From NCBI RefSeq assembly GCF_009600315.1, contig NZ_WIWC01000007.1, forward strand, positions 62,001-126,000: a stretch of 64,000 nt of DNA. The letters run 5' to 3'. Both the position numbers and the translations under genes were made by a program. This DNA is from Pseudomonas helleri. Its GTDB lineage: Bacteria; Pseudomonadota; Gammaproteobacteria; Pseudomonadales; Pseudomonadaceae. Shown here piece by piece: positions 14,627 through 33,091 of the stretch (positions are counted from its first letter, which is position 1; every line of letters begins with the position of its first letter). The notes below the pieces were generated by a model. It ran no database searches, had not been told where the DNA came from, and saw only the letters and a list, made by a program, of their open reading frames with translations.

Positions 14627-14648
14627 ACAGGAGTCCTTGGCGTGAGAG

Positions 14649-15554: not shown

Positions 15555-16442
15555 GTGGAGCTCAAGCATTTGAAAGCGTTTGCGACCTTGGCCGAAGAGC
15601 TGCATTTCGGTCGTGCGGCGGCGCGTCTGCACATTGTCCAGCCAGCCATGAGTGCGCAAATACGTGCTCTGGAGGAATTTGTAGGCGCGCAGTTATTCGA
15701 GCGTAACCGGCACCGAGTCGAGTTGACCGAGGAGGGAATGCTGTTTCTGCCCGAGGCCTTGGCGACCCTGCGCCAGGCGGGTCGCGCCCTAGAGGTGTTA
15801 CAGCAAGCAGCGGCCGGAGACGTTGGCATATTGCGTCTGGCATTTGTGTCTTCAACGCTGTCGCACTTGTTGCCGCAACTTGTGCGTACGCTGGAGCAGC
15901 GCCACCCGCATATCGAACTGGAGCTCAAGGACATGCCATCGCAAGCGCAAGCTCGGGCCTTGCTGGACAACGCTCTGGATTTTGGCTTGGTACGCCTGCC
16001 CTTGAATGCACCGGGCGTGCATACCCGCATGCTCTTCGAAGAGTCACTGGTCGTAGCGCTGCCACAAGAACACCCTCTATGCGCCAAGCGTCGTATAAAG
16101 CCTCAGGATTTGGCCGGGTGTCCGGTTTTGGTACTGGCGCGCAAGTTTGCTCCCGGCTTGTATGACCAAATGCTGGCAGGCTTCCACAGACGAAAAGTGA
16201 CACTGACCATTGCCCGGGAAATGGGCGAGTTCACCACTCAGTTGGCGTTGGTGGCCGCCGGTTTAGGTATTGGCATCTTGCCAAGCGGTGCCGCATCGGC
16301 ATTGCCAGCCGGTGTTGTGACGTTACCACTGGCTCTGCCCATGAGTGGAGCAGGCATCGGCGTGGCCTGGCTCGGTCTGGAAAACCCTCGCAAACGGGCG
16401 CTGATGAGGGCGCTGGATGAACTTTATCCTGCGATTGAGTAG
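15555..16442 (+). CDS. LysR-family regulator divergent from the SDR/AroE-like/MFS operon
   Basis: A 295-residue LysR protein starting at GTG 15555 with GGGGAG five bases upstream. The winged helix reads MELKHLKAFATLAEELHFGRAAARL and QPAMSAQIRALEEFVGAQLFER, typical of the BenM/CatM/CbbR-like group. The effector domain has GDVGILRLAFVSSTLSHLLPQLV and closes with GLENPRKRALMRALDELYP. It is transcribed away from the SDR/AroE-like/MFS operon with a perfect dyad between, so it very probably controls that operon. Its last 19 bases overlap the 3' end of the convergent gene that ends the aminoglycoside-type cluster. Confidence 0.93.
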   Translation: MELKHLKAFATLAEELHFGRAAARLHIVQPAMSAQIRALEEFVGAQLFERNRHRVELTEEGMLFLPEALATLRQAGRALEVLQQAAAGDVGILRLAFVSSTLSHLLPQLVRTLEQRHPHIELELKDMPSQAQARALLDNALDFGLVRLPLNAPGVHTRMLFEESLVVALPQEHPLCAKRRIKPQDLAGCPVLVLARKFAPGLYDQMLAGFHRRKVTLTIAREMGEFTTQLALVAAGLGIGILPSGAASALPAGVVTLPLALPMSGAGIGVAWLGLENPRKRALMRALDELYPAIE

Positions 16443-18055
16443 CAACCCAGAGTTGTCCAATCGATCCCTTTTTCCAGTTCAAATCGACAGACAGGACCCC
16501 CCAGCAAAAGCTGCGCCTCAATAGCGTGCTCAGCGTCGGCGGTGTGCCCCCACGGAACGGTGTCCAGGCCCCGCAGTAATTCCGTCAGTACGCCCTGATC
16601 GAGGCTATCGCCGAAGCGAGCAACCACAAAATGTTTCGCGCGGCGAAATCGTATGCCAGTGTCGAGCAGTTGCGTAACCAAGGACGACACCCCAAAGACC
16701 TGCACCGCCATTTCAGGATTATGCCGCACCATCATCCCAGACAATCCAGATAGCGATAACGACCCAGCGACCACCAATTGCCGGAGGTCATCTGCCATGT
16801 CCGAACGTTTAAACAAGCAGGCTGCGGTCAGGTCATCACCCGTATTGAAGACACTCCGTCTAGAGAGCTCCCCAAGCGCCTCTCCAGGCCACTGGGCCGC
16901 GAGGAAAAGGCTGGCCTGCCTGAGCGATTCATAACGATCGGACCACCGTAAATCGCCCGCAGAAGCCTCATTCAACCAGCACGCATACCTGTCGATTAAG
17001 CGCCGGCAATAATCAAATCCCCTGCGTAAACAACGCAAGAGCAGACCACGGATAACTCGGCTACGTGCAATCGCGGCAACCAGCGACGACATCGGCAAAG
17101 CGTGCAAAGGCACGTACTGCGACGCGTCCTCGAGCACAGCCCGATACCGTACCATCGTAGTCAATATCTCCCGCCATTCCTGCCCGCGTAATCGCTCGGC
17201 CAGGCCATCGACGACCACGTTGGCGACATATGAAAAATCGTAAGAGGCATCGAATAGCAAACGCGTGACGACCACAAAGTGTCTGAGCTCCTCGTAATCC
17301 CAAGGGTCTGATCCAGGTGCGGTCAGCCGTATGAACAGTGTCCAGGTACCCAGCACTTGCTCGCGTCGAAACGTCAACGTAGGGAACGTCCACGTGCGGA
17401 ACAGTTCTAGAAACACCTCAAACGCCAAAATCCGGGCGATTTCATCGCCAGGACAATCAGGCGGCTCCGTCCATTCCACCGAGATCTGCCGTGGCGTGAA
17501 CACGTAACTGGCCTTGTGCGTGCCCATCGGAATCTGAATCTCTAACAACTCGCGATCAAAGCGCAGAACCTTCGTCGAGCGGCTGCTAAACGTTGAACAA
17601 AAGTGTTCGAGCGCTTGCACGCGTTCTGGTAGTCGCAACGTGTCGAGCCGCAGCCCTGCTAAGGAGTATTGATGAAGGAGATTGTGTAAAACGTGCGGAT
17701 TTTTATATCGCACGGGGGTGCCGCAGGCGCCAGCAACAAGGTCAAATTCGAATCGCCAGTTGCGGTCCTGTATATCGAATGACTCAGGTATCTCTTCATC
17801 AGCCCATTGGCGCAACCAGATTTGAAAGCGCTGAAGCACTGCACTATCACGCTCAGACAACGATCCCATGCTCATAAACTCGATCCATCCTTGCATCACG
17901 CTCAGATAGCGGCGATAGCTTGTAGCATCCACCTGTTCAACCGTACGTCCTAGTAAACCCTTCAATGAGGCGTCGTAAACTTCGACTAGCGATCCTCTGA
18001 TCTGCTCAGCTACGTTCTCCAGACTGGCATCATGAAGCGCAGACCGAAGTGACAA
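16424..18055 (-). CDS. Unknown protein at the end of the aminoglycoside-type cluster
   Basis: A protein of up to 543 residues that I do not recognise. It has no signal peptide, no clear membrane segment and no metal or nucleotide motif; it looks largely helical and soluble, with the hydrophobic stretches of a globular core (RILAFEVFLELFRTWTFPTL, RHFVVVTRLLFDASYDFSYV). The only start near the beginning is TTG 18055 without a good ribosome site, and the first 46 bases overlap the end of the ATP-grasp protein gene in another frame. The frame stays open about 14 codons upstream of that TTG. It may therefore be translated by coupling, or it may be the C-terminal part of a single larger protein split by a frameshift. 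The cluster context suggests a role with the ATP-grasp protein. Confidence 0.75.
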   Translation of the reverse strand: MSLRSALHDASLENVAEQIRGSLVEVYDASLKGLLGRTVEQVDATSYRRYLSVMQGWIEFMSMGSLSERDSAVLQRFQIWLRQWADEEIPESFDIQDRNWRFEFDLVAGACGTPVRYKNPHVLHNLLHQYSLAGLRLDTLRLPERVQALEHFCSTFSSRSTKVLRFDRELLEIQIPMGTHKASYVFTPRQISVEWTEPPDCPGDEIARILAFEVFLELFRTWTFPTLTFRREQVLGTWTLFIRLTAPGSDPWDYEELRHFVVVTRLLFDASYDFSYVANVVVDGLAERLRGQEWREILTTMVRYRAVLEDASQYVPLHALPMSSLVAAIARSRVIRGLLLRCLRRGFDYCRRLIDRYACWLNEASAGDLRWSDRYESLRQASLFLAAQWPGEALGELSRRSVFNTGDDLTAACLFKRSDMADDLRQLVVAGSLSLSGLSGMMVRHNPEMAVQVFGVSSLVTQLLDTGIRFRRAKHFVVARFGDSLDQGVLTELLRGLDTVPWGHTADAEHAIEAQLLLGGPVCRFELEKGIDWTTLGCYSIAG

Positions 18056-20094
18056 ATAGGCGTGATTAGTTGCTGAGCAAGCCCCTGCGACACATCACCA
18101 CCCGACACAATGCCTCTAAACAACTCTACTGACTGCCGGAATCTATCTACCGGCTCAAGAACGACTGGTTTATTAAGCGCCTGTCTCGCAAGCAAGACCC
18201 CACTTACGATCGGCAACTCCAATGAGCGAATGGACACTATCGCCTCGACAGGTAAACCGCCTTCAAGGCTGCACGCCAATGCATCAAGGCAGGAAACCGT
18301 CTCCTCCAGCGTATAGACCGGCAGTTTCGCGCACTCATCTCTGACTAAGGCCACACTTTCAAGAATCAGTACGGCGTGGTCGCGCCGAAACGCCGCCACG
18401 TGTACGGCGGCCGAATGGAGCAATCGCCGCAACGTCTGCGGCGGCACCCAGGAGGTAGCGGCTTCACAGCTGAGCAGTGCCATGACGATTCGAAGATCAC
18501 CACTCGCGACCAGCGCGCGTGTTGCGGACGATAGCGCGAACAGTGCGTGCAACTCGTGCTGCGGCGTCCCCTGCAAGACCTGAAAAGCACGTTTATAGTC
18601 TGTGGCGAACTCAGTGAGCGAGTAGCATTTTTCAGTCTCTCCCGAGTGCTGTGAACGCCAGATTGCCGCGAACAAAGAAGGTGACGCCACTGCTCCATCA
18701 GCACGCTGTATCCACCTTGTCGGGTTCGGCTGTTCGGTGCGAGCGAACAGCCTGTCCTTGACTTCACTCGCGATCGGCAGGCTGCGCAATTCAGAAAGAA
18801 CTTCGACACAGTCTCGTGCTAGCTCACCACCGGAAATCAACACCTCATCAGTGAAAACAAGACCGCAGTCATCGGGCAACACCAACTCTCGGCGAGTCAC
18901 ACTTTGAATGGACCGCAACATCGTTGAGTCGCCAAGGATGCAAGCACCACGGTCAAATACAACGCAATCTGCTCCGACAGGCGCTCGTCGAGTGTCCATC
19001 TTGATGCAGGTGATTTTCTGGTGGCGAAACATGATGCCAGCGTGCTCCTCCGCACTGCCTTCATCCACAACGACCACTGCCACCTCGGCCTTGTCATTCG
19101 CGTTGAGCGCGAGATAGCGACGCCACGCGCTCATGAGATCGGGCGCCAATAGTGCGCGCCCCGAAGAATGTGCACCTAGCGTCAGCAAGCCCGCTTCAAC
19201 TGCATCGTAACGTCCGATCAACGCCTCACGACATGCATCGGTCAGTACTTCACGATCGCGAAAGTCACCTTCAGAACAGGCGGGTCTAACCTGAAGCAAA
19301 TACATGTGTTTCACCGTCGTCATACGCAGGTGACGTCCACGCCAGAGCCTAAGACCTGAGGAAGCCGGACGCAAAGCCAAGGTCGTCGCGCGGGAGCCCG
19401 TATTCTGAGCGCATGCAAAACCGAAACCGATTGTATGCGCAACGTTCATCAGCTTTGGGTTCATCGGCATGACGGTCGTGACAGACACAAAACCCAGCGT
19501 CGTCTCGAGCCCCCATTCGCAATCGATCGCCGTGAAGTCAAATATCTGCATTAACTCATTACATACCGACTCCATGTAATCCAGAACGGCTAAATCCAGA
19601 TACGGCGAGTGGTCCGGGGCGACATCGTCGCAGACAGCTATGTTCAACAGTGGCTGCACAAAGCATGGGATGTCAGCGGCATCACCGTTATGCCCCGACA
19701 GTGCAAGCTGGCGTTGTGCGTGCTCAGTAGACCCACTCATGGCCACAACGGCAACGCACCGTATCAACGCCTGTGGCTCATGACATATAAGGCTTTCATA
19801 GCCGCCAGCATTAACGTTATCAGTTAAATCCTCATTACCCGCACTACGGACGATCCAGGGCGCTGGACCGCAGACCGCCTCCACGCGCTGCCTCAACTGC
19901 GGAGAAGCTTTTTCCAAAGTAGCTGCATAGATTGATACCGCGTCGGCCGCCGGAGGCAGGCTACCAGCCACAATGGTCGACAATGGCTTTATAGGAAATA
20001 CAGGCAGGACAAGATGGCTCAGAGACTCGACTTTACGGATATGCAGCAGTCGATCTACCTTGGGTGCGTAACGGCGCTCTTTGTCTATGGTCAT
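18010..20094 (-). CDS. PEP-synthase-like protein: PPDK N-type ATP-grasp plus phosphohistidine domain
   Basis: A 694-residue protein with a dikinase layout. Residues about 75-271 follow the pyruvate phosphate dikinase N-terminal ATP-grasp pattern: WIVRSAGNEDL (82-90, family VRSSATxEDL), NAGGYESLI, DCEWGLE (191-197) and YLLQVRP (265-271), the family's closing Q-x-RP motif. A swivel-domain-like block follows, with His351 in GSAEEHAGIMFRHQKITCI, where PEP synthase has TCHAAIIARELGIPAV. Residues about 400-694 do not resemble the PEP-binding barrel and I do not recognise them. The known chemistry of this layout is transfer of a phosphate from ATP through a histidine to an acceptor; rifampicin phosphotransferase uses it to inactivate an antibiotic. 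A self-resistance or tailoring phosphotransferase role here is inference. Confidence 0.7.
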   Translation of the reverse strand: MTIDKERRYAPKVDRLLHIRKVESLSHLVLPVFPIKPLSTIVAGSLPPAADAVSIYAATLEKASPQLRQRVEAVCGPAPWIVRSAGNEDLTDNVNAGGYESLICHEPQALIRCVAVVAMSGSTEHAQRQLALSGHNGDAADIPCFVQPLLNIAVCDDVAPDHSPYLDLAVLDYMESVCNELMQIFDFTAIDCEWGLETTLGFVSVTTVMPMNPKLMNVAHTIGFGFACAQNTGSRATTLALRPASSGLRLWRGRHLRMTTVKHMYLLQVRPACSEGDFRDREVLTDACREALIGRYDAVEAGLLTLGAHSSGRALLAPDLMSAWRRYLALNANDKAEVAVVVVDEGSAEEHAGIMFRHQKITCIKMDTRRAPVGADCVVFDRGACILGDSTMLRSIQSVTRRELVLPDDCGLVFTDEVLISGGELARDCVEVLSELRSLPIASEVKDRLFARTEQPNPTRWIQRADGAVASPSLFAAIWRSQHSGETEKCYSLTEFATDYKRAFQVLQGTPQHELHALFALSSATRALVASGDLRIVMALLSCEAATSWVPPQTLRRLLHSAAVHVAAFRRDHAVLILESVALVRDECAKLPVYTLEETVSCLDALACSLEGGLPVEAIVSIRSLELPIVSGVLLARQALNKPVVLEPVDRFRQSVELFRGIVSGGDVSQGLAQQLITPICHFGLRFMMPVWRT

Positions 20095-20213
20095 GATTTA
20101 GTACGCAATATTGGATGAGTGGAGTAGTTGAGTATGAAGCTGGGCCAGCATCTGGGATCTATTAACCTCACACCACATACGTGCTCCGCACATCTTTAAT
20201 AAGCCGCCTGAAT

Positions 20214-22046
20214 TCATTTGCAATCTCCCAGAAAGCCACCGCTTTGATGAGCCCACAACCTTGCATAAAGACCACCTTGTTCAAGCAGCGTCGCGTGGTT
20301 GCCTTGTTCGACAATACGTCCCTCATCAAGAACGATTAAACGGTCCATCGCCGCGATAGTGGAGAGTCGATGCGCGATCGCAATGACAGTCTTACCTTCC
20401 ATTAATCGGTAAAGGCTTTGCTGAATTACGGCTTCTACTTCGGAGTCGAGTGCGCTGGTCGCCTCATCTAGCAGCAGGATTGGTGCGTCTTTGAGCATCA
20501 CGCGCGCAATGGCTATTCGCTGACGCTGCCCACCCGAGAGTTTGACTCCACGCTCACCCACATGTGCTTCATAACCGCAGCGCTTTCCGGCATCACCGAG
20601 ATCTCGGATAAATGTGTGCGCCTCTGCGCGCCGAGCAGCTGCCTCAACCTGGGAGAAATTCGCGTCGGGTCTCCCATATGAAATATTGTCAGCTACTGAC
20701 CTATGCAGCAGCGAGACGTCCTGAGTAACTATGCCGATTTGGCTGCGCAACGACTCCTGAGTAACGTGTGCGATATTCTGTCCGTCAATCAGGATGCGAC
20801 CGTTTTCAAGATCATGAAAACGCAGCAACAAGTTCAACAGAGTCGACTTACCAGCTCCCGATCGGCCAACCAGGCCAATTTTTTCACCAGCCCTGATCGT
20901 GAGATCCAGATCGTCAATCACACGTCGACTGCTTTCTGCGTAACAAAAGCTCACTCGTTTGAAACATACCTCGCCATGCCTAGTCTGAAGGGAGATAGCA
21001 TCAGGTGCATCGAGAACCGTAGGTGGGATCGACAGCATCTTCATCCCGTCCTGCACTATTCCGACGTTCTCGAAGAGGCTAGTCATTTCCCACATAAGCC
21101 ATTGCGACATACTTTGCAGTCGCAACGCCATAGCGGTGCCAGCAGCAACGGCCCCTACTCCCACTAAACCTTGCGACCACAGCCACAATGCAGTGCCCAA
21201 CATGCCAATCGTGAGCCCAACGCTCAGAAGATGATTCACAATCTCGAAGGTACTCACTAGTCGCATCTCTGCGTAACCGGTGCGCATGAATTCGTGCATA
21301 GCTTCGCGCGCAAACACCGCCTCACGCTGCGTATGCGAGAACAATTTAACGGTGGCTATATTGGAATACGCGTCGGTCACACGCCCCGTCAACAAGGCCC
21401 CCGCGTCAGCTTGCTCCTTGCCAAACTTGCCAAGGCGAGGCACAAAGTAGAACAACACAGCGACAAAAATGACGAACCAAATCATAAAAGGCCATATCAA
21501 TTGCACATCAATGACGCCAACCAAGATGATCATGCTCGTCACGTACACACTCATAGCAACCATGACATCGGCCAGCACGAAAATAGTTCCGCGCACGGCT
21601 ATAGAGGTTTGCATCACCTTGGCCGTAATACGCCCCGCGAACTCGTCCTGATAAAAGGACATGCTCTGCCCCAACACCAACCTGTGAAAGTTCCACTTAA
21701 GCCGCATGGGCAAATTTACTGTGAAGGTCTGATGCTTTAAGACAGTCTGTAGCACCACTACTGCGATGCTGATCCCCATCACGACTAACAGCCATAATAA
21801 TGTTCCGCCGCGCTCAACCCACAAGTGCGTTGGCACCTGAACACTGAGCCAGTCAACAATTCTTCCTAGCATGGCAATCAGCAATACTTCTAACGCTGAC
21901 ATTATCATCGTGAGTAAAGCCATAAGTGCGATCTTGCCTCGCATTCCCTGCGTGCAAGCCCATAGAAAAGCGATTAAACCCCGAGGCGGCTGCGATGGCT
22001 CAGAGACAGGAAACGGGCAGAGAAGCTTTTCAAAATAGCCGAACAA
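20214..22046 (-). CDS. ABC exporter, fused permease and ATPase
   Basis: A 610-residue half-transporter of the MsbA/peptide-and-lipid exporter type. The first two thirds carry about six membrane helices (for example KIALMALLTMIMSALEVLLI and LWLLVVMGISIAVVVLQTV). The ATPase domain has Walker A GLVGRSGAGKSTLL, the Q-loop region GIVTQDVSLLHRSVADNISYG, signature KLSGGQRQRIAIAR, Walker B ILLLDEATSALDSE and the switch His in AIAHRLST. The start is TTG 22046, with GTGAGG seven bases upstream. It lies within the leftward arm of the aminoglycoside-type cluster, so export of the product or of a precursor, and so part of self-protection, is likely by context. Substrate specificity cannot be read. Confidence 0.92.
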   Translation of the reverse strand: MFGYFEKLLCPFPVSEPSQPPRGLIAFLWACTQGMRGKIALMALLTMIMSALEVLLIAMLGRIVDWLSVQVPTHLWVERGGTLLWLLVVMGISIAVVVLQTVLKHQTFTVNLPMRLKWNFHRLVLGQSMSFYQDEFAGRITAKVMQTSIAVRGTIFVLADVMVAMSVYVTSMIILVGVIDVQLIWPFMIWFVIFVAVLFYFVPRLGKFGKEQADAGALLTGRVTDAYSNIATVKLFSHTQREAVFAREAMHEFMRTGYAEMRLVSTFEIVNHLLSVGLTIGMLGTALWLWSQGLVGVGAVAAGTAMALRLQSMSQWLMWEMTSLFENVGIVQDGMKMLSIPPTVLDAPDAISLQTRHGEVCFKRVSFCYAESSRRVIDDLDLTIRAGEKIGLVGRSGAGKSTLLNLLLRFHDLENGRILIDGQNIAHVTQESLRSQIGIVTQDVSLLHRSVADNISYGRPDANFSQVEAAARRAEAHTFIRDLGDAGKRCGYEAHVGERGVKLSGGQRQRIAIARVMLKDAPILLLDEATSALDSEVEAVIQQSLYRLMEGKTVIAIAHRLSTIAAMDRLIVLDEGRIVEQGNHATLLEQGGLYARLWAHQSGGFLGDCK

Positions 22047-22155
22047 TTTATTGCCTCACAGAGAGTCCATGACAGTTACAAATCGTTGTAAGTTGGTATC
22101 GGACAACGCGTTGGCATATCAGAACAATGCGATAAATAGACTATTTCATATTCCC

Positions 22156-23430
22156 TTAAGCACGCTGGTTTCCGATCAACTTCGCAACTTTTTCGAAAGC
22201 TGCAGCTACATACGTCATCGCTCCCGTGTCAGCCAACAGCATGCGATGAGGTAGAGCGATACAGGACTTGGAAAAGTCTTGCGCTATAGGTAATTGAAAG
22301 CGTGATGGATCAATCGCATCAGTGAATGCCTGATTCAACTTAAACCGGTTGCGCGAGTATGGTTTGTAGAGACGGCTCTGATTAAGCGAGCTATACATCA
22401 TCTTGCAGGGAAGACAAATTTCCGCAGAAAGAGCTGCGGCGAATCGTTCAGCTCCATGATTCTCAACAATCGACTGCGGCAACCTCACCACATAAGTGTA
22501 ATGTGACCGCTCAGTAGTACGAGGGGCAGTAGCTTGTGGCATGAAACCAAGAGAAGCTAGGAGGCTATCCAGAACAGATGCATTATGCCGCCGATGTGCC
22601 AGATGTTCGTCCAAGATCTCTAGTTGCGCCATCAAGATGGCAGCATGAAACTCTGAGAGACAGTAGTTGTTGCCCATGATCTCCGCAGTCTCGACCAGTG
22701 CCATCTCATCTATGTAAGGAGGTAGCACGGCGAGCGTTCGGCCATCAGCCCTTAGATGCTCCACTCGGCGTGCCAGGCTATGGCTGTTAGTAATTACAGC
22801 CCCACCCTCTCCGCTTGTCAGCAGCTTACTATGCTGCATTGAAAAGGTGCCGACCGCACCGAAGCAACCAACATGTCGACCGGCATAACGCGCACCATGT
22901 GCTTGGGCGCAATCTTCAATCAAAGGAATGGAGTGCGCCCGAGCAATCGCAACCAAGCGATCCAGATCGGCAACTGCCGAACCTAGATGAACCACCGTGA
23001 TAGCTCGAGTACGCGACGTGATTGAGCGCTCAAGTGCCACTGGATCAAGGCAACCGGTCTCGGGATCCACATCGGTCAGGACAGGGATAGCATTGACCCC
23101 AAGTACCGCGGACGCAGATGCGACCCAACTCACGCCTGGCACAATCACCTCGTCATAGGCACCGACCTCGCAGGCCTCTAACGCCATGCTCAAGCTAGCG
23201 GTTCCTGACGAAGCAGGCACGCAGTAGCTGGCACCTGTATAAAGAGCAAAAGCCCGTCCGAAACGCTCTTCCCAAGAAGACTGCCCACGATACTGACCGC
23301 TGATAGACCATCGGTGGCTCCCTAGCACAGCATTCACATTACTACGGGTGCTCTCAGTGCTCTGGGGCCAATCAGGCCAATTCCCGTCGTGGATCGTAGC
23401 TCCTCCATAAATCGCTAATTTTTCCAACAT
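22156..23430 (-). CDS. DegT/StrS-type aminotransferase, probable 2-deoxy-scyllo-inosose aminotransferase
   Basis: A 424-residue PLP enzyme of the secondary-metabolic aminotransferase family. It has the family order: WSISGQYRG, SGTASLSMALEA, DEVIVPGVSWVASASAVLGV, VVHLGSAVADLD, IEDCAQAHGA (172-180) and SMQHSKLLTSGEGG with the PLP lysine at 202. This wording matches the BtrR/NeoB/StsC group, which uses L-glutamine to aminate 2-deoxy-scyllo-inosose and later the amino-inosose on the way to 2-deoxystreptamine. GGAGG lies five bases before ATG 23430. It is encoded in the same arm as the inosose synthase, which makes the substrate assignment strong. By family knowledge one enzyme can serve both transamination steps. 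Confidence 0.9.
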   Translation of the reverse strand: MLEKLAIYGGATIHDGNWPDWPQSTESTRSNVNAVLGSHRWSISGQYRGQSSWEERFGRAFALYTGASYCVPASSGTASLSMALEACEVGAYDEVIVPGVSWVASASAVLGVNAIPVLTDVDPETGCLDPVALERSITSRTRAITVVHLGSAVADLDRLVAIARAHSIPLIEDCAQAHGARYAGRHVGCFGAVGTFSMQHSKLLTSGEGGAVITNSHSLARRVEHLRADGRTLAVLPPYIDEMALVETAEIMGNNYCLSEFHAAILMAQLEILDEHLAHRRHNASVLDSLLASLGFMPQATAPRTTERSHYTYVVRLPQSIVENHGAERFAAALSAEICLPCKMMYSSLNQSRLYKPYSRNRFKLNQAFTDAIDPSRFQLPIAQDFSKSCIALPHRMLLADTGAMTYVAAAFEKVAKLIGNQRA

Positions 23431-25503: not shown

Positions 25504-25504
25504 G

Positions 25505-27358
25505 TCATTCCCCCGAGAAGGTGTCTATCTCAGCCAACTCAAAAGTTATCTTGAGCAACTGATGGAAATCTTCACAGAGCGTGGTACGTCCACTGTCGCT
25601 AAGGACCCTCACACTGCGAATCCTGGACTCGGCAATCGTCAGTGCAGCCAGAGATAAGCTCTCCCGGACGCTAGACCAAGTTAGGCCGCACAGTGATGCG
25701 AGCTGTCCAGCAACTTCAATCTCCAGGCTATTCTCGAGGATGAAAGCGGCTACTTCGAGCTCGGGAAAGCTGATATCACCCCAGTTTGCTTCCAGTTGAA
25801 AATGATGAAGCCTTGCGTTTCGGTCAACTTGCCAGTGCCAACCACCACTCCCATAACGCAATGACGAACGGAATACCCTGCCTTGCTCTCCTGGCCACAT
25901 CACTGGTTTCACTAGAAACTCTCTCAGTGGCTCAGATATCTTTTGCAGCGGATCACAACCGCAGTGCTTGCGCATGGTATCTGCCATTACCGACCAACGC
26001 AGATCAAGCGCCAATATCACAGGACTGTTAAATGTGTGCGCTATGGTTTGACATTCAGGTACAACCAACCAGCTCGCCGCTTGAAGCAGTAGGTCGGCTC
26101 GTCTGAAGCCGCGCGATAAATGAAACTCCTCCTGGAATGAACGTGTTTCGCCGATATCGACCGTAATTACATAACCATCAACTAGCCAAGCTGAACGTGT
26201 GGGGGCCATCTTCCGCACACGATCGAACTCTGCACAACCAAACACTCCTTCGCCGATGAAACGCAGATGTAACAGTGCCTCACCATTTGAACCCTGAATT
26301 TCGATCGGCGTCTTACGCGGATTAACTAAAACCCGACGCCCGCTTAGAACCTGCGGGTCATTCCATGGAAGCCAAGCCTGACCGAATCCGTAACGCATCT
26401 CACCTTGTGGGCACCGGTAGTGGAGTCGCGCCTGAGAGGGAAACGAAGGTATTCCCGCTATGCTCCGTAGTCTCGCCATGAATTCTGGCTGTTCATTAGG
26501 TAATAAACATTCCCAAAGACGTGGTGTACGCGAGTTACGTATAACGCATGCCGAGAGGTTTGATGCTACACAGCGAGCTTCAGAATCGTGCCGGAGCTTG
26601 CCGACGCTCGCGAACCACAAATCCACCCCGCGCTCGCGAAACTGCTCTCCTACACATTCCATGGTAGCCCCCGTATCCGGCTGATCGTCTACCACCACGA
26701 TCACAGGTGCAAATCGATGCTGCAACCAAGCCCGAGCTGTTTCTAAACCATCAACCGCTGCACACCCTTTGCTCGGTCGCACCGTGCACCAGTGCACATC
26801 CTCGACCCCCAACCCCGTAAGTGAGGCCTTCCAGAGGGGAGCAAGATATGCTCCACCTGTACGGATCCCGACGATCAAGAAAGGCCTGTCAAAGCTCACC
26901 TGCGTAATTAATCGATCAACGTCGCCAGAAATTAAAGCCAAATCAGCAAGGTCGTAGCCGCAACACTCTGGCATCGGCAAAAGGAGTAATTTGTTCAGGC
27001 AATCGGGCGTTGTATTTACATGTAGTTCGAGAATCGCACATGCGAGGTGATCAATATCTTCGGGCACATCAACAATCCGCCCCAGCAACATAAGTGCAGC
27101 ACAATCAGCTGCACATTCGGCGTGAAAAAGTAGTGTTTCTAGCCTTTCCGGTGTGGTATTACCGTGCACGCCATAAATTTTGACCAGAGAAAGCAGATCG
27201 GCCAAAAATTGCACACTGGCGCAGGCGACCAGATATCGATGATCCAAGGCGCCCGGAACAACTGCTGCATTCAAACGCCCGATCACTTCGCCGATATCGA
27301 TGCGCAACAACCCTACTGGGCTCGCTCTGGAAGATTGGTTAACAAGGAGATTACTCAT
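25505..27358 (-). CDS. Large protein with a phosphoribosyltransferase motif, candidate neamine phosphoribosyltransferase (BtrL/NeoL role)
   Basis: About 617 residues from ATG 27358 (a GTG at 27391 in frame is an alternative; neither has a clear ribosome site). Residues about 155-240 hold a type I phosphoribosyltransferase core: FLIVGIRTGGAYLAPLWKA (GIRTGG 164-169) and the PRPP loop VIVVVDDQPDTGATM (about 219-233, family DDxxxTGxT). The N-terminal helical part and the C-terminal 350 residues are not recognised. In butirosin and neomycin synthesis BtrL/NeoL join ribose-5-phosphate from PRPP to neamine and a phosphatase then gives ribostamycin. A PRPP-type transferase in a cluster with the whole neamine set points to that step. 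The role is inference; the motif is visible. Confidence 0.75.
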   Translation of the reverse strand: MSNLLVNQSSRASPVGLLRIDIGEVIGRLNAAVVPGALDHRYLVACASVQFLADLLSLVKIYGVHGNTTPERLETLLFHAECAADCAALMLLGRIVDVPEDIDHLACAILELHVNTTPDCLNKLLLLPMPECCGYDLADLALISGDVDRLITQVSFDRPFLIVGIRTGGAYLAPLWKASLTGLGVEDVHWCTVRPSKGCAAVDGLETARAWLQHRFAPVIVVVDDQPDTGATMECVGEQFRERGVDLWFASVGKLRHDSEARCVASNLSACVIRNSRTPRLWECLLPNEQPEFMARLRSIAGIPSFPSQARLHYRCPQGEMRYGFGQAWLPWNDPQVLSGRRVLVNPRKTPIEIQGSNGEALLHLRFIGEGVFGCAEFDRVRKMAPTRSAWLVDGYVITVDIGETRSFQEEFHLSRGFRRADLLLQAASWLVVPECQTIAHTFNSPVILALDLRWSVMADTMRKHCGCDPLQKISEPLREFLVKPVMWPGEQGRVFRSSLRYGSGGWHWQVDRNARLHHFQLEANWGDISFPELEVAAFILENSLEIEVAGQLASLCGLTWSSVRESLSLAALTIAESRIRSVRVLSDSGRTTLCEDFHQLLKITFELAEIDTFSGE

Positions 27359-27421
27359 ATATACCAACGCAGTAAAAGTTCGACCTTGCACCCATATATC
27401 TGGACATAAAAATCGCCAAAA

Positions 27422-28564
27422 CTATGGCTTTGCTCCAGTGGAAACATCATTTACTTCCACTAAACAATCTTCAATGCAAGATTGAATTAGCGAGGCATCA
27501 ACCAGTACCAGGGGCCTGTCAATAGGCCCAGCCGGAATCCCCAGACAATCAAGAAGGATCATGGCAACTTGATCAGGACGAGTGAATAGATAACCTCGCT
27601 TATTGTCCGTACTCAGCAACGCCATCACTGCGGCGACAGTAACCCCGACTGGCAATTTAACTGCCAGCCCGTTAAGTTTGAGTAATCTATGGTGAAGACT
27701 CTTATCTGCATCGCTTAATAGCCCTAAACGACTGGAAACTTCCGCAGCCACTATCATTCCAAGACCCACGGCCTCGCCATGCGGTACTCGACCCTCTGCC
27801 ACCAGCTCAATTGCATGACCTACTGTGTGGCCATACTCAAATACAAGGGCCTCTTTGCGCTCACATTTGTCGACTTTCATAACCTTCTGTTTTGCAAGCA
27901 AGCCGGCCTCAACAATGACCATGAGCTCTGTATCCGAATAATTTGCGTCCAACCTCAGTCCACTTTCAAGAAAAGGAATGTTTTCGGTGGCTACGGTCAA
28001 TGCGTTTTTGATGATCTCGTACATTCCTGAACGAATTTGCGCCGCCGGTAATGTCTGCAAGAAATTGAGATCTATCAAAACTGCAGTGGGTTTGTGAAAA
28101 CAACCCAGTAAATTTTTTCCTGAAGAAAGATTCACCGCTTGCTTGAGTGAGGCTACGGAATCTGCCGCTGCTATCAATGTAGTAGGCACATGGACGAGAC
28201 GAATACCTCGAAACAATAAGGCCGCTAACAATCCAGCGATATTTCCGACGACACCACCCCCTACAGCGACTACCACGCTCGCTCTATCAATTCCAGCGCA
28301 AACCATTTTCTCCGCAAGACACTCAACCGTTCTCAGAGACTTTAAAAGCTCACGGCTATCAATAACAGACATATTAACTAAAGCATGAACTGATAGCTGA
28401 TCATATAACTCGGCAGCATGCAACTTACTCAAGAGCTTATCGGTAATCAGATGAAAACTCGAAGCATTAAGCTCAAGCAAATTTGATACGATTTCATCAA
28501 TACATCGAATACCAATCCTTACCGGATAGCACTCTTCTTCAAATTGAAGACACAAGCTACGCAT
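27422..28564 (-). CDS. 2-deoxy-scyllo-inosose synthase (DHQ-synthase fold sugar-phosphate cyclase)
   Basis: The first committed enzyme of 2-deoxystreptamine synthesis: it cyclises glucose-6-phosphate, using NAD+ and a divalent metal. From ATG 28564 (AGGGGG four bases upstream) it has 380 residues; BtrC is a little shorter, and the open frame upstream has no family sequence. Diagnostic blocks are AVGGGVVGNIAG (100-110), DSVASLKQAVNLSSGKNLLG (135-154), GMYEIIKN, FEYGHTVGHAIE (242-253), PHGEA and DNKRGY. Zinc ligands read as Glu183, His246 and His262. True dehydroquinate synthases have a DSSVGGKTGVN block in place of DSVASLKQAVN, so a housekeeping aroB is excluded. It opens the leftward arm. Base composition here is AT-rich compared with the flanks. 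Confidence 0.95.
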   Translation of the reverse strand: MRSLCLQFEEECYPVRIGIRCIDEIVSNLLELNASSFHLITDKLLSKLHAAELYDQLSVHALVNMSVIDSRELLKSLRTVECLAEKMVCAGIDRASVVVAVGGGVVGNIAGLLAALLFRGIRLVHVPTTLIAAADSVASLKQAVNLSSGKNLLGCFHKPTAVLIDLNFLQTLPAAQIRSGMYEIIKNALTVATENIPFLESGLRLDANYSDTELMVIVEAGLLAKQKVMKVDKCERKEALVFEYGHTVGHAIELVAEGRVPHGEAVGLGMIVAAEVSSRLGLLSDADKSLHHRLLKLNGLAVKLPVGVTVAAVMALLSTDNKRGYLFTRPDQVAMILLDCLGIPAGPIDRPLVLVDASLIQSCIEDCLVEVNDVSTGAKP

Positions 28565-28945
28565 GAGACCCCCTAGGAGCTTTCGCCATAGTTGCTTTGA
28601 TTTACTCAGCACTTCCATAAAGATAATGGTATTTGTAAATCTGTCAATAGCCTTTCGCTGCAAATTCAATTAAAAATCCACACATCTAAATGTAAGAAAC
28701 ACCTTACAAACTCTATATTTATATTAGGAAAAGTATTACAAAACAACCAAGCCATTAAAGCTCACGCTCATTTTTATAGTTCCTATCGATCAAAAGTTAT
28801 TTGACTACTCGACAACTGCGTGCAATTTTAAAGAGAAATCACGAATCAAACCCCATAACAACAAACGCATCTGTAGGATCAGGATTACACAACTTTAAAA
28901 CCAACATCTCAGAATTTTTAGAAACAACATAAAGGAATTCCCTCA
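28565..28945. promoter_or_regulatory. AT-rich divergent promoter region of the aminoglycoside-type cluster
   Basis: Some 380 bases, clearly richer in A and T than the rest of the window, between the inosose synthase (leftward) and the flavin 6'-oxidase (rightward). It must hold the promoters of both arms. A perfect dyad lies at 28691-28708. A TTGACT at 28801-28806 could be a -35 element for the rightward arm, but I see no good -10 at the right distance. No gene is supported inside it. Confidence 0.6.
28691..28708. promoter_or_regulatory. Perfect 6-6-6 inverted repeat, possible operator
   Basis: TGTAAG (28691-28696), spacer AAACAC, CTTACA (28703-28708). It lies in the divergent promoter region about 130 bases before the inosose synthase start. 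No pathway-specific regulator is encoded in the cluster, so its binding protein, if any, is unknown. Confidence 0.4.
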
Positions 28946-30553
28946 ATGATGATTTCTTTATTAGAGCATTACGTCGAAGTCACTCCACTTGGTACGTCTC
29001 ATATTCACGGGTTACAGTTAAAGACCCCACTGGACGATGCTTACGACGTGGTGGTCATTGGTAGCGGAGCCGCGGGAGCGATTACTGCTAACACATTCGT
29101 CAGAACAGGGCTTCGCACTCTCTTGCTGGAGGAGGGAGCTAGACCTAAAGCCACTGCAAGCAATGCAGACGTTGACGCGCAAGCCGAACACGCATTGGCA
29201 GGCAATTGCACGAAAGGCTGGAGTGAATGCGGATGGCCGTGGAGTACGCGCAATCTCGGTGGGGGCACTGTTTTCTACGGCGGAGCTTCATTTCGGTACA
29301 CCGAATTCGATTTCGATCCCAGCGAGCGCATCCGTGTCGAAGGGTTACCAGTGAAATGGCCCATTAGTTCTTCCGATCTCGCTCCTTTCTACGACGAAAT
29401 AGAATCGACTCTTTCGATCGATCGTGCCGGATTTGAGTGTTGCCGGACACAGGCTCCAGATACGCTGAGCCTACCTGCGGAGCATCTTTGGGCAGGAGCG
29501 CTGCAGCTCGGTTTATCCCCCCGTCCAACGCCTGTGGCAATTGACCGTAGCAAGTGCGACCACTGCTCCTTGTGCATCGCGAGACAGTGCTCACGCGGTG
29601 CCAAGCGTGATGTGGTCAGCTCCCTTCTAGCCCCCTTGGCCAACACGTCAAATATGCTGCTATTAACCGGCGTTAAGGCCATCGCCCTAACACAGGATAA
29701 ATACGATCGTGCTAGCGCGGTCCAGTGCATGGATACAACAACGGGGCAGACTTTTTCCATCCGTGGGCACCGTTTTGTACTCGCCTGTAATGCAATTCAA
29801 ACGGCCGCGTTACTGCTACGTTCGATTACGCCTCATGCACCAAGAGGACTTGGCAATGAGCACGATTTAGTCGGTCGTGGCCTTTGCATGAAACTCAGCG
29901 AGTACTCACAAGGCCTGGTTAGTGTGAGCAGACAACAAATCGACAATCACCCTATAGGTTATAGGGGACCTTTTTCGACAGTCTGCACGCTTGACCATTA
30001 TCTGGATGAACGCTGCCCTACCGGTGTCGGCGGACTAATGTACGAAGCCAAACACGACGACTGGGGCCTTCTGCAAGGCGATGGCTTGATATTACGTGTG
30101 GAAACCATTCTTGCTGACCAACCGTCTCTCGGAAATCGGGTCCGTCTATCCACTAGTACAGACTCATGGGGCTTACCCAAAATAATGATCGACTACACGA
30201 CAAACCCACAGGATCTGGCACGCCTAGCTTATATGGTAGAGCGCTCAACTGACTGGCTCAAAGCCGCCGGCGCACGTGATATCAAACATGAAGCCTCGAA
30301 CTTCGCAATGGGCAGTACTCACCTACACGGGACCTGCCGTGCGGGTGACGATCCGCGAACATCCGTTGTAGATCGCAATGGCAAGCTCCATTCACTGGAT
30401 AACGTTTACGTTGCAGATGGCAGCTATATGCCCTATCCCGGCGGTGTGAATCCAACTCTTACAATCCAAGCCAATGCATTGAGAATTGCCCGCCTTATCG
30501 CCCACGATGCAACGGGTCATGCGACCGCTAGCTTGCAGCCATTTTTTAACTGA
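28946..30553 (+). CDS. Flavin-dependent paromamine 6'-oxidase-like enzyme (GMC oxidoreductase, NeoQ/BtrQ role)
   Basis: A 535-residue FAD enzyme of the glucose-methanol-choline family. It has the dinucleotide motif VVVIGSGAAGAI (35-46), NLGGGTVFYGGASFRY, a four-cysteine block CDHCSLCIARQC (Cys204, 207, 210, 215) followed by RGAKRDV, ACNAIQTAALLLRS, LVGRGLCMKLSEY, DERCPTGVGG, the catalytic-region STHLHGTCRAGDDP and the closing VADGSYMPYPGGVNPTLTIQ. This wording is that of the paromamine 6'-oxidases of the neomycin and kanamycin clusters, which oxidise the 6'-alcohol to the aldehyde before transamination. AAAGGA lies upstream of ATG 28946. It opens the rightward arm, divergent from the inosose synthase. 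Confidence 0.93.
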   Translation: MMISLLEHYVEVTPLGTSHIHGLQLKTPLDDAYDVVVIGSGAAGAITANTFVRTGLRTLLLEEGARPKATASNADVDAQAEHALAGNCTKGWSECGWPWSTRNLGGGTVFYGGASFRYTEFDFDPSERIRVEGLPVKWPISSSDLAPFYDEIESTLSIDRAGFECCRTQAPDTLSLPAEHLWAGALQLGLSPRPTPVAIDRSKCDHCSLCIARQCSRGAKRDVVSSLLAPLANTSNMLLLTGVKAIALTQDKYDRASAVQCMDTTTGQTFSIRGHRFVLACNAIQTAALLLRSITPHAPRGLGNEHDLVGRGLCMKLSEYSQGLVSVSRQQIDNHPIGYRGPFSTVCTLDHYLDERCPTGVGGLMYEAKHDDWGLLQGDGLILRVETILADQPSLGNRVRLSTSTDSWGLPKIMIDYTTNPQDLARLAYMVERSTDWLKAAGARDIKHEASNFAMGSTHLHGTCRAGDDPRTSVVDRNGKLHSLDNVYVADGSYMPYPGGVNPTLTIQANALRIARLIAHDATGHATASLQPFFN

Positions 30554-30566
30554 AGATCAGCCAAAA

Positions 30567-30827
30567 ATGATCACCTTAATGTCACCTCACTTCATTCGCC
30601 GACTCATCATTCACACGATCTGTAATGTGACCGGGGAGTCCCCGAAAGATGTAAACGCCCTCGACAGGGTTGCATTAAATACACGCGACTGGGAACAGGT
30701 CTTCAGCCGCTTGGAGGCGAAACTCGACATCCAGACCGACATGATGACTTCTGCAGAGCGGTCAATATCAATAGACGAGTTGGCGTGTGTTCTGCACACC
30801 ATGCTGTCAGACGACGTCAGCACTTGA
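30567..30827 (+). CDS. Acyl-carrier-protein-like small protein lacking the phosphopantetheine serine
   Basis: An 86-residue protein starting 13 bases after the oxidase stop (ATG 30567; ATG 30579 is possible). Its pattern of hydrophobic positions fits a four-helix carrier protein: IRRLIIHTICNVTGESPKDV, then LNTRDWEQVFSRLEAKLDI, then SISIDELACVLHTML. Where carrier proteins have LDSLDW with the phosphopantetheine serine, this one has LNTRDW, so Thr replaces Ser. It may be a non-modified docking or scaffold protein, a carrier with unusual modification, or an unrelated helical protein. Butirosin synthesis uses a carrier protein (BtrI) of similar size, but none of its partner genes are seen here. 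Confidence 0.6.
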   Translation: MITLMSPHFIRRLIIHTICNVTGESPKDVNALDRVALNTRDWEQVFSRLEAKLDIQTDMMTSAERSISIDELACVLHTMLSDDVST

Positions 30828-30978
30828 CCGATGCATAACGGTCGTCGCTTAGAGTCCTGAACAGCACCGAAACCTCACGGTCAGGATGGCTGAAGACAAC
30901 TGTTACATACCGCTACAGCCCACGCTTGCGTTCTCGAATTGCCTTCACACCTAATTCATTACCAAAGGCCTGATTCGC

Positions 30979-32214
30979 ATGAAAGTATTGAAACTGACGC
31001 CCTTTTCCCATCATCCCGATGTTGATTCGTGGCCAGCAGCGTACGACTCGGTAGGCGGCATGCAGATTCAGACTTGGCGACAAGCAGTTTGGCTCGCTCA
31101 GAAAGGTATCAATCAACATGTCATGACTATTGGCTTCCCGGGACTGCCCAAGCAACGGTTATTACAGCCGTTTCTATCGGTAGAGTGCCTGCTGCTACCT
31201 ATGCTCCACATACCGTCCGAATTTAGTGGCTTGATTGGGCTGACTCAGTCGTGGGCCTTGGCAACACTGGCCGCGCTATTCCCAAAAAGGCGCAAGCATG
31301 ATTTCGATGTGGTTCATATTCATCTCGACGGACAAATTCCGGCACTGCTCGTCGCCTGTTTAGCACCTGGATTGCTACGATGCCCTCTAATTCTGACGGT
31401 GCATTGCTCTCGTCTCGCGGTCTACACGCCGCATTCTTGGCTGGATAAGGTTCAGCACCGCCTTGCCGGGTGGCTGGAACGCAAAGCTGTAAGCTCGGCC
31501 TTAACTGTCGTCGCCCTGACCCAAAGAACGGCCTCTCAACTCATAGATGATGCTCGTCGTGTCGAAATCATTCCTGACGTGGTCGACACCACACAATTTG
31601 CACCGCCCCCACAAGAAGCTATAACTGCGTTCCGCAAGCATCATAATCTACGACGGAAAACGGTAGGATTTGTCGGCCGTATCGCGAAAGAAAAAGGATG
31701 GAAGCACCTCATCCCACTTGCTCAGGCACTTCGCGAACAAGAGTGTGAGTTGCTTATCGTCGGCGACGGAACACAACGTGATCGACTACAGCACGGCATA
31801 GACAAGGCTGGACTGAAAGAATGGGTAACAGTGACGGGTTTCATCCCGAATCATGAAGTGCCATTGGCGATGTCGGCCTGCCGTCTAATAGTCATGCCCT
31901 CGGCGTATGAAGAGTTCGGCGGCGTCAGCATTGAAGCGCTGGCCACTGGGGTCCCAGTGGTAGCTTTTGCCGTTGGAGGTCTTCCGGAAATTTTGCGTGG
32001 CATTACTCCCGACTTGTTGATCGCGCCAGAAGATACGCGCGCGCTAATTGCACGAGTCCAAGCGGTACTAGCCGGACATCATTCACAGAGTATCGCTCCA
32101 GATCGGTTGCGGGCCTACGTTAAGCAACGGTATGACCCATCCGTAATGGGCGCCCAAATTCTGTCTCTATACCAACTGGCATTAAGCAATTCTACGAGAC
32201 CTGTCAGACGGTGA
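30979..32214 (+). CDS. GT4 glycosyltransferase, probable 2-deoxystreptamine N-acetylglucosaminyltransferase (NeoM/BtrM type)
   Basis: A 411-residue GT-B enzyme. The N-terminal acceptor half reads MKVLKLTPFSHHPDVDSWPA, VGGMQIQ, VMTIGFPGLPKQR, SGLIGLTQSWALA and VVHIHLDGQIPALL, wording shared with the neomycin and butirosin first glycosyltransferases. The donor half has VGFVGRIAKEKGWKHL, TGFIPNHEVPLAMSACR and the nucleotide-sugar block YEEFGGVSIEALATGVPVVAFAVGGLPE. It should join GlcNAc from UDP-GlcNAc to the 4-hydroxyl of 2-deoxystreptamine, giving the substrate of the PIG-L deacetylase at 23528. It follows the small carrier-like gene by 151 bases. Only one glycosyltransferase is present in the cluster, so a second hexosamine is not predicted. 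Confidence 0.92.
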   Translation: MKVLKLTPFSHHPDVDSWPAAYDSVGGMQIQTWRQAVWLAQKGINQHVMTIGFPGLPKQRLLQPFLSVECLLLPMLHIPSEFSGLIGLTQSWALATLAALFPKRRKHDFDVVHIHLDGQIPALLVACLAPGLLRCPLILTVHCSRLAVYTPHSWLDKVQHRLAGWLERKAVSSALTVVALTQRTASQLIDDARRVEIIPDVVDTTQFAPPPQEAITAFRKHHNLRRKTVGFVGRIAKEKGWKHLIPLAQALREQECELLIVGDGTQRDRLQHGIDKAGLKEWVTVTGFIPNHEVPLAMSACRLIVMPSAYEEFGGVSIEALATGVPVVAFAVGGLPEILRGITPDLLIAPEDTRALIARVQAVLAGHHSQSIAPDRLRAYVKQRYDPSVMGAQILSLYQLALSNSTRPVRR

Positions 32215-32263
32215 CGCCATCGACAATAGCTTGCCCAACTAAAAAACTGCTATGGAGGATTCT

Positions 32264-33091
32264 ATGTCGCTAATTCACCTCCCGAATAATGTTTCAGCAT
32301 CAGAAGTCGTGCAGTGCTTGCGGGAGCACGGCTACGCCATAATTGACAAGCTCGTACCAGGCATCGCGATGGATCGCATTGCCGTAGAGCTCGAACCCTA
32401 TACCAGAATGACGCCCTTCGGGCCTGACGACATACTTGGCAGGAAAACCAAACGTACCGGCGGATTAATCGCGCGATCTCCAGGAGCGCGTGAATTAATC
32501 CTCAATCCCACTATTCTAGAGACTACACGGCGCTTTCTATCTCACGCCTCGACGTTTCAGATCCATTGCACTCAGGTCGTGTCCATTCATCCGGGAGCAA
32601 GAGCACAAACACTGCATCAAGACGAAGTAGCTTGGGACATGTTCCCTTTTCCTCACGACTATCATGTGCAATGCAACACGTTATGGGCCATGACCGACTA
32701 CTCGGAAAAGATGGGTGCCACACGCATCGTACCCGGCAGCCACAAAGCTGGACGTAGTGTCGAGTTTGAGATAAAGGACAGCTACCCTGCAGAAATGGAA
32801 AAAGGGTCAGTACTCGTTTACGACGGAAAGGTGTACCACGGCGGTGGAGCCAATCACTCCAACCAAGTCCGGTCCGCCATCAACCTGACATATGCGCTCG
32901 GCTGGCTTCGGCAAGAGGAGAACCAGTTCCTGTCCTGCCCGCTCGAAATTGCTCGTAAGTTACCGGACCAATTGCTACACCTCATGGGTTATCAATGCGC
33001 AGCGTTCGCTTTGGGATACGTTAATGGGTTCGAGGATCCGATGACTGTGCTAGGCCGAGGTCAACCAGGAAAACTCATGGGGCGCAGTTGA
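32264..33091 (+). CDS. PhyH-family Fe(II)/2-oxoglutarate dioxygenase
   Basis: A 275-residue non-heme iron dioxygenase; ATG 32264 has GGAGG five bases upstream, whereas ATG 32252 would contain that ribosome site. The iron triad is His118 and Asp120 in LHQDEVAWDMFPFP and His192 in VYHGGGANHS, and Arg203 is placed to bind 2-oxoglutarate. IVPGSHKAG and CNTLWAMTDYSEKMGATR are typical. It is the last gene of the rightward arm, 49 bases after the glycosyltransferase. KanJ of the kanamycin pathway is a PhyH enzyme that oxidises an amino carbon to a ketone, so tailoring of the aminoglycoside, or supply of the missing inosamine oxidation, are the two roles I would test. Both are inference. Confidence 0.88.
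   Translation: MSLIHLPNNVSASEVVQCLREHGYAIIDKLVPGIAMDRIAVELEPYTRMTPFGPDDILGRKTKRTGGLIARSPGARELILNPTILETTRRFLSHASTFQIHCTQVVSIHPGARAQTLHQDEVAWDMFPFPHDYHVQCNTLWAMTDYSEKMGATRIVPGSHKAGRSVEFEIKDSYPAEMEKGSVLVYDGKVYHGGGANHSNQVRSAINLTYALGWLRQEENQFLSCPLEIARKLPDQLLHLMGYQCAAFALGYVNGFEDPMTVLGRGQPGKLMGRS

What the first reader, a model, noticed from the sequence alone, without database searches (positions are those of the whole stretch)
16424..33091. A 2-deoxystreptamine aminoglycoside-type biosynthetic cluster in a Pseudomonas genome
Seen: inosose synthase, DegT aminotransferase, NeoM/BtrM-like glycosyltransferase, PIG-L deacetylase, GMC 6'-oxidase, class III 6'-aminotransferase and a PRPP-type transferase in two divergent arms, with an ABC exporter. 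Established: these are the enzymes that take glucose-6-phosphate to neamine and, with BtrL/NeoL, to ribostamycin in actinomycetes and Bacillus circulans. Inference: this bacterium makes a neamine- or ribostamycin-like compound. I know of no characterised aminoglycoside of this class from a Pseudomonas, but I could not search.
Basis: partly seen in the sequence, partly recalled or inferred. Interest (0 to 1): 0.97.

Follow-up and report, generated by a model that had tools for sequence, protein, structure and literature searches.

The report
Pseudomonas gene cassette for an aminoglycoside
A 16.7-kilobase block of genes in this Pseudomonas, found also in seven other Pseudomonas genomes and one Rugamonas genome, is predicted to make a neamine- or ribostamycin-like antibiotic, likely with an unusual oxidising enzyme and an unusual phosphate-transferring enzyme, although one of its large genes is out of frame in this genome.

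Summary
Its coordinates match a discrete cassette: DNA shared with five other Pseudomonas genomes begins at 16441-16452 and ends at 33150-33160, and a relative (G011) has the two flanks about 860 bases apart without it. The cyclase is a 2-deoxy-scyllo-inosose (DOI) synthase, not an AroB. The DegT enzyme matches DOI aminotransferases and the class-III enzyme NeoN-type 6'-aminotransferases. With a glycosyltransferase, PIG-L deacetylase, GMC oxidase and phosphoribosyltransferase, the set fits a route to neamine and ribostamycin. No product is shown.

It is not unreported: a 2021 eLife paper predicts the same enzyme set in Pseudomonas Ps639; the passages I read give no product.

New here: (1) the two unannotated ORFs are one ~1,200-residue protein in relatives, out of frame in this genome, with a front half most like rifampin phosphotransferase, an ATP-grasp/phosphohistidine enzyme; (2) no BtrN-type dehydrogenase in nine carriers, but an always-present 2OG-Fe(II) oxygenase that could stand in; (3) a missed DUF6137 gene; (4) a distant kin cluster on a Sodalis plasmid that does carry BtrN.

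The parts
16441..33160 (.). whole cassette: DNA shared with other Pseudomonas genomes; GC 52.1% against 54.7% in the rest of the window
16424..18055 (-). C-terminal half (543 aa ORF) of a ~1,200-aa protein; no Pfam match; largely helical in the model of an intact relative
18010..20094 (-). N-terminal half (694 aa ORF) of the same protein: predicted ATP-grasp plus phosphohistidine swivel domain (dikinase type); out of frame with the C-terminal half in this genome
20214..22046 (-). ABC exporter, membrane domain fused to ATPase (610 aa)
22156..23430 (-). DegT-type L-glutamine:2-deoxy-scyllo-inosose aminotransferase
23528..24259 (-). PIG-L deacetylase, predicted 2'-N-acetylparomamine deacetylase (NeoD/BtrD-like)
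   Evidence: role from the Ps639 comparison in PMC8719888
24256..25503 (-). class III 6'-aminotransferase (NeoN-type)
25505..27391 (-). predicted neamine phosphoribosyltransferase (628 aa): PRTase domain about 145-280 plus a C-terminal aminoglycoside-phosphotransferase/choline-kinase-like fold about 294-625
27422..28564 (-). 2-deoxy-scyllo-inosose synthase (380 aa from ATG at 28564; ORF open from 28669)
28565..28945 (.). AT-rich divergent region between the two arms
   Evidence: no promoter above chance by the consensus scan
28946..30553 (+). GMC oxidoreductase, predicted paromamine 6'-oxidase (ParQ-like)
   Evidence: role from PMC8719888
30567..30827 (+).
30979..32214 (+). GT4 glycosyltransferase, predicted 2-deoxystreptamine GlcNAc-transferase (NeoM/BtrM-like)
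   Evidence: role from PMC8719888
32252..33091 (+). PhyH-type 2OG-Fe(II) oxygenase; candidate substitute for the DOIA dehydrogenase

Best explanation
The block 16441-33160 is a conserved, likely horizontally moved gene cassette that is predicted to make a neamine- or ribostamycin-type 2-deoxystreptamine aminoglycoside and to export it through its own ABC transporter. Predicted route: glucose-6-phosphate to DOI (27422-28564), first amination (22156-23430), oxidation of the resulting DOIA (enzyme unassigned; the 2OG-Fe(II) oxygenase 32252-33091 is the best candidate in the cassette), second amination by the same DegT enzyme, addition of GlcNAc (30979-32214), deacetylation to paromamine (23528-24259), 6'-oxidation (28946-30553) and 6'-amination (24256-25503) to neamine, then phosphoribosylation (25505-27391). 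Identity of the cyclase and both aminotransferases rests on sequence tests made here; the order and products are inferred from the neomycin/butirosin pathways (recalled, and as used in PMC8719888). The ~1,200-residue protein (16424-20094, split here) is inferred to be a dikinase that moves a phosphate from ATP through a histidine to a small-molecule acceptor; the pathway intermediate or product is the likeliest acceptor, which would protect the producer.
Confidence: 0.8

Rival explanations
1. The 2OG-Fe(II) oxygenase tailors the finished aminoglycoside (for example hydroxylation), and DOIA is oxidised by an ordinary alcohol dehydrogenase encoded elsewhere in the genome.
For: KanJ, a 2OG oxygenase, acts late in kanamycin biosynthesis (recalled); this protein matches KanJ only weakly (22 bits). 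Pseudomonas genomes hold many alcohol dehydrogenases (recalled; not searched).
Against: The oxygenase is in 9 of 9 clusters of this type and was not found in the 37-kb Sodalis stretch, which has BtrN instead. But that stretch also lacks the GMC and class-III genes, so the swap is one observation only.
Confidence: 0.45
2. The GMC oxidase does both oxidations, DOIA at C-1 and paromamine at C-6', so no separate DOIA dehydrogenase is needed.
For: It is the only dehydrogenase-like protein recognised in the cassette besides the oxygenase. The Sodalis stretch, with BtrN, has no GMC gene.
Against: Closest named relative reported for Ps639 is the dedicated 6'-dehydrogenase ParQ at 51% (PMC8719888).
Confidence: 0.15
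3. The ~1,200-residue dikinase-like protein is biosynthetic, for example phosphorylating or activating an intermediate, and not a protection enzyme.
For: It goes with the phosphoribosyltransferase in all carriers examined, Sodalis included. Its order, ATP-grasp, histidine domain, third domain, puts the histidine domain in the middle as in PPDK, whereas the rifampin phosphotransferase match reaches to residue 866 of that enzyme, whose catalytic His is 825 (PMC4844700, passage).
Against: The neomycin and butirosin routes need no such step (recalled), and no other protection gene was recognised in the cassette.
Confidence: 0.4
4. In this strain the cassette is decaying and makes nothing.
For: Frameshift in the ~1,200-aa gene, 8 of 8 other carriers in frame.
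Against: Both halves still differ from two relatives mostly at third codon positions (34-40% against 11-13% at second positions) and the other cassette genes are open, so the shift is recent or an assembly error in a 218-contig draft.
Confidence: 0.3
5. The enzymes make a different aminocyclitol glycoside, not an antibiotic.
For: No product known; DOIS-type enzymes also sit in gene sets that do not look like neamine clusters, as in G1125.
Against: NeoN-type aminotransferase, the ParQ/NeoM/NeoD-type enzymes reported for Ps639 and the exporter together point to neamine.
Confidence: 0.12

Closest known systems
Aminoglycoside-like gene cluster of Pseudomonas strain Ps639 (PMC8719888)
   Same: Same enzyme set as listed in the passages read: DOI synthase, phosphoribosyltransferase, NeoN, NeoD, ParS, ParQ, NeoM types and a 2OG-Fe(II) oxygenase
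   Different: The passages name no ~1,200-aa protein, DUF6137 gene or exporter, report no product, and do not discuss the missing DOIA dehydrogenase; the strain's sequence was not compared here
Neomycin, paromomycin, ribostamycin and butirosin clusters (neo, par, rbm, btr)
   Same: DOI synthase, DOI aminotransferase and class-III 6'-aminotransferase tested here against solved members; GT4, PIG-L, GMC and phosphoribosyltransferase by family only
   Different: No BtrN found, no NeoA-like gene or phosphatase recognised in the cassette; added 2OG oxygenase, dikinase-like protein and DUF6137 (whether the known clusters hold kin of the last two was not tested)
Sodalis praecaptivus plasmid pHS1 cluster (NZ_CP006570, locus L024)
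   Same: DOI synthase 53%, DegT 61%, GT4 54%, PIG-L 34%, phosphoribosyltransferase 32%, the ~1,200-aa protein 31% (one 1,226-aa gene), DUF6137 36%
   Different: Has BtrN, a histidine phosphatase and an ABC-2 type exporter; no class-III aminotransferase, GMC oxidase or 2OG oxygenase found in the 37-kb stretch (the rest of its genome not searched)
Rifampin phosphotransferase and pyruvate phosphate dikinase
   Same: Predicted ATP-grasp and phosphohistidine swivel folds and motifs in the first ~360 residues
   Different: Third, acceptor part has no recognised relative; acceptor unknown

Membership tests
2-deoxystreptamine aminoglycoside cluster (neamine/ribostamycin type) | 2-deoxy-scyllo-inosose synthase rather than dehydroquinate synthase | tested here: met
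2-deoxystreptamine aminoglycoside cluster (neamine/ribostamycin type) | L-glutamine:DOI aminotransferase | tested here: met
2-deoxystreptamine aminoglycoside cluster (neamine/ribostamycin type) | DOIA dehydrogenase, alternative 1: BtrN (radical SAM) type | tested here: not met
   found in 1 of 14, the Sodalis positive control; absent from the window's genome and 8 other carriers. This is one of two known alternatives, so it does not by itself decide membership
2-deoxystreptamine aminoglycoside cluster (neamine/ribostamycin type) | DOIA dehydrogenase, alternative 2: NeoA (alcohol dehydrogenase) type | tested here: inconclusive
   no alcohol dehydrogenase of that kind among the cassette genes; the rest of the genome was not searched
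2-deoxystreptamine aminoglycoside cluster (neamine/ribostamycin type) | GlcNAc-transferase and N-deacetylase making paromamine | tested here: inconclusive
   right families present; substrate specificity rests on PMC8719888's identities for Ps639
2-deoxystreptamine aminoglycoside cluster (neamine/ribostamycin type) | 6'-aminotransferase of NeoN type | tested here: met
2-deoxystreptamine aminoglycoside cluster (neamine/ribostamycin type) | Phosphoribosyltransferase with PRPP loop | tested here: met
   DD.PD.G.T positions kept in at least 27 of 30 rows (the longer string DDxPDTGAT in 13 of 31); fold; activity untested
2-deoxystreptamine aminoglycoside cluster (neamine/ribostamycin type) | Phosphatase that finishes ribostamycin | tested here: inconclusive
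   none recognised among the cassette genes by Pfam; the rest of the genome was not searched
2-deoxystreptamine aminoglycoside cluster (neamine/ribostamycin type) | Product contains 2-deoxystreptamine | not testable with these tools
   needs mass spectrometry
Rifampin phosphotransferase / PPDK dikinases | ATP-grasp and swivelling His domains with their motifs | tested here: inconclusive
Rifampin phosphotransferase / PPDK dikinases | Known acceptor domain (rifampin-binding or PEP barrel) | tested here: inconclusive
   no convincing match for residues after about 365
Aminoglycoside phosphotransferase (C-terminal part of the phosphoribosyltransferase) | Catalytic HxDxxxxN motif (motif recalled) | tested here: not met
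KanJ kanamycin B dioxygenase | Close sequence kinship | tested here: not met
   22 bits; the best solved relative is SwnH1 with 89 bits

The most novel reading that the evidence does not exclude
Gram-negative bacteria run their own form of 2-deoxystreptamine aminoglycoside biosynthesis: an Fe(II)/2-oxoglutarate oxygenase makes the second ketone in place of NeoA or BtrN, and a rifampin-phosphotransferase-like dikinase, a kind of enzyme not known to me to act on aminoglycosides, phosphorylates the compound to keep the producer safe before export.
Probability: 0.25. Interest if true: 0.85.

Novelty: new variant of a known kind. Interest (0 to 1): 0.62.

Why it matters
Aminoglycosides of this class are known from actinomycetes and bacilli (recalled). 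A Pseudomonas producer would have to protect ribosomes of the kind these drugs hit, so its protection and export would be informative about how Gram-negatives live with such drugs, and its enzymes (an oxygenase in place of a dehydrogenase, a dikinase acting on a sugar antibiotic) would widen the toolbox for making them. The missing-step question is directly testable with single enzymes.

Tried and rejected
Rejected: cyclase as AroB (in one search BtrC, G1125, the Streptomyces row and Sodalis are long branches, so the order inside the DOIS group is unsure, and the window row is in no small starred set). Valiolone-type synthases were not compared apart from what the PDB search listed. Rejected: oxygenase as a KanJ orthologue. 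Rejected: 16424-18055 and 18010-20094 as two separate genes.

Led nowhere: FmrO (PF07091) search, nothing matched anywhere, controls included, so no statement on 16S rRNA methylases; papers on DUF6137 (0), on BtrL/ribostamycin/neamine/phosphoribosyltransferase (0) and on Sodalis praecaptivus with aminoglycoside (0); promoter scan of the divergent region, 1 site against 2.1 expected; repeats at the cassette ends, none of note, each end searched apart; tRNA in the window, none. NCBIfam gave no family over its cut-off among the rows shown for the ten cassette proteins scanned (lists capped at 25). PDB profile search for the ~1,200-aa protein: none. Relatives sought more widely: DOI synthase in the class, 0 of 368 others at E <= 1e-66; family of Rugamonas, 2 of 392 including Rugamonas itself; phosphoribosyltransferase in the genus group of G1125, 1 of 74, the Rugamonas genome. 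The radical SAM protein of the G190 cluster was considered a BtrN; pairwise E 2e-5 over 77 residues and no match, so left open. Protein searches scored only the ~7,997 candidates sharing most words, so absence of actinomycete NeoL or kin there shows nothing. My first motif patterns for the oxygenase were ill-spaced and found nothing or only the HxD; one search shows HxD, distal His and Arg in 9 of 9.

Papers: PMC8719888, PMC8704066, PMC12498427 (no mention of Pseudomonas) and PMC4844700, passages only; all others, search listing and start of abstract only. Searches on such clusters: 5 papers, all listed; 20 of 80 listed; 2; 20 of 240 listed; 2; 2.
Full report
Observation. The finding describes a 2-deoxystreptamine (2-DOS) cluster at 16424-33091. 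All its genes are there. The cyclase at 27422-28564(-) is a DOI synthase by three tests: its best solved relative is BtrC (249 bits) against 144 bits for the best dehydroquinate synthase; the residue two before the GHT motif is Glu (EYGHT) in all 12 DOIS-type rows that one search prints and Asn (NLGHT) in all 4 AroB-type rows, the window genome's own AroB included (that this Glu marks DOI synthases is recalled); and in a 21-row tree the 16 DOIS-type rows, BtrC among them, stand apart from 5 AroB rows at 100/100. The DegT enzyme matches L-glutamine:DOI aminotransferases (489, 298 and 296 bits, then 172 for the next kind). The class-III enzyme matches C-6' and neamine aminotransferases (223 down to 147 bits, then 80). 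For PIG-L, GMC and GT4 the Pfam families are clear but solved relatives are distant, so their roles lean on PMC8719888's identities for the Ps639 counterparts.

Genus. G002, G225 and G153, which the tool calls same genus as the window, have contigs of the same length as named Pseudomonas records, so the window is taken as Pseudomonas.

A cassette with sharp ends. The gene set is collinear in seven other Pseudomonas (G298, G002, G225, G204, G153 and the loci of 48H11 and the metagenome-assembled RYN_598; in the last two the first-fetched stretch ends inside the last gene) and complete but differently ordered, on one strand, in Rugamonas sp. CCM 8940. Shared DNA in the five genomes compared runs from 16441-16452 to 33150-33160 with nothing outside. 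In G011, which has no such DOI synthase, window 12369-16433 and 33203-33805 lie about 860 bases apart; that interval holds other sequence, so the event was not a clean insertion. Third-position GC of eight cassette genes is 0.41-0.57 against 0.64-0.72 in five flanking genes. The cassette is rare: DOI synthase at 75% identity or more in 5 of 397 other genomes of the genus, one per species, no DOIS-type match at E <= 1e-66 in 368 others of the class, and 2 of 392 in the family of Rugamonas, one of them Rugamonas itself.

Already in print in outline. PMC8719888 (eLife 2021, passages read) reports an antiSMASH-predicted aminoglycoside cluster in Pseudomonas Ps639 with the same enzymes, names ParC, NeoL, NeoN, NeoD, ParS, ParQ and NeoM as relatives at 33-56% identity, and mentions the 2OG-Fe(II) oxygenase. 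No product is given in those passages. PMC8704066 (passage) names aminoglycoside among PRISM-predicted clusters infrequent in Pseudomonas, without genes. Among the papers listed (the lists of 20 and 98 are cut at 20 of 80 and 20 of 240) I saw no other on such a cluster in Pseudomonas; the library lacks most subscription journals.

Gaps in the route. The genome has no BtrN by search: the Sodalis BtrN relative (186 bits to solved BtrN) matched in 1 of 14 records, the Sodalis control, and not in nine carriers. NeoA-type dehydrogenases elsewhere in the genome were not sought. The always-present 2OG-Fe(II) oxygenase keeps HxD, the distal His and the Arg in 9 of 9 copies (that these bind iron and 2-oxoglutarate is recalled) and is the best in-cassette candidate for the missing oxidation; the 37-kb Sodalis stretch, with BtrN, lacks it, but also lacks the GMC and class-III genes, so this is one contrast and not a pattern. 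No phosphatase was recognised in the cassette; Sodalis has a histidine phosphatase next to its ~1,200-aa gene. No canonical self-protection gene was recognised in the cassette; the one methylase search made was uninformative.

Most likely mechanism. The core makes 2-DOS, paromamine and neamine and adds phosphoribose; the ABC protein exports the product. Shown by sequence: identities of cyclase and two aminotransferases, and family membership of the others. Inferred: order, product, the oxygenase's and the dikinase's roles.

Verdict. A real, conserved and rare 2-DOS-type cassette in Pseudomonas, predicted before in another strain, with features that make it a variant of the known clusters. Interest is reduced by the earlier report and by the lack of a product, and raised by the unassigned oxidation and the dikinase-like protein.

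Noticed in passing
window 41950-54227 (+): Three large ORFs with Tc insecticidal toxin complex domains (VRP1, TcA TcB-binding domain, SpvB and TcdB regions), about 9 kb from the cassette; described by Pfam only.
   Followed up: no
L036 8971-19160 (G190); DOI synthase, DegT and PIG-L also in L038 (G104) and L040 (G127): A second, different DOIS-type gene set in 3 of 397 other Pseudomonas genomes: DOI synthase about 40% identical, DegT aminotransferase and PIG-L; in G190, the one annotated, also two glycosyltransferases, a radical SAM/SPASM protein, a methyltransferase, UDP-GlcNAc 2-epimerase-like and asparagine-synthase-like proteins.
   Followed up: partly
L024 9277-25413 (Sodalis praecaptivus plasmid pHS1): A 2-DOS-type cluster on a Sodalis plasmid, with BtrN, histidine phosphatase and ABC-2 exporter, and the ~1,200-aa dikinase-like protein as one gene.
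   Followed up: partly
L057 6323-18053 (G1125): A DOIS-type cyclase (41% identity) with, within 12 kb, a DegT aminotransferase (50%), glutamine synthetase, AMP-binding enzyme, cupin and SDR: probably another aminocyclitol product.
   Followed up: partly
L025 14980-17693 (Streptomyces sp. NBC_00015 plasmid): A gene annotated as DOI synthase with an MFS transporter beside it and no other aminoglycoside genes annotated in the 31 kb shown.
   Followed up: no
window 35853-37973 (-): HAD-type phosphatase fused to a mannitol-dehydrogenase-type domain in one 706-aa protein, outside the cassette.
   Followed up: no
window 30567-30827 (+): The DUF6137 protein reads by eye like a small carrier-protein fold without the usual serine; not tested.
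   Followed up: no
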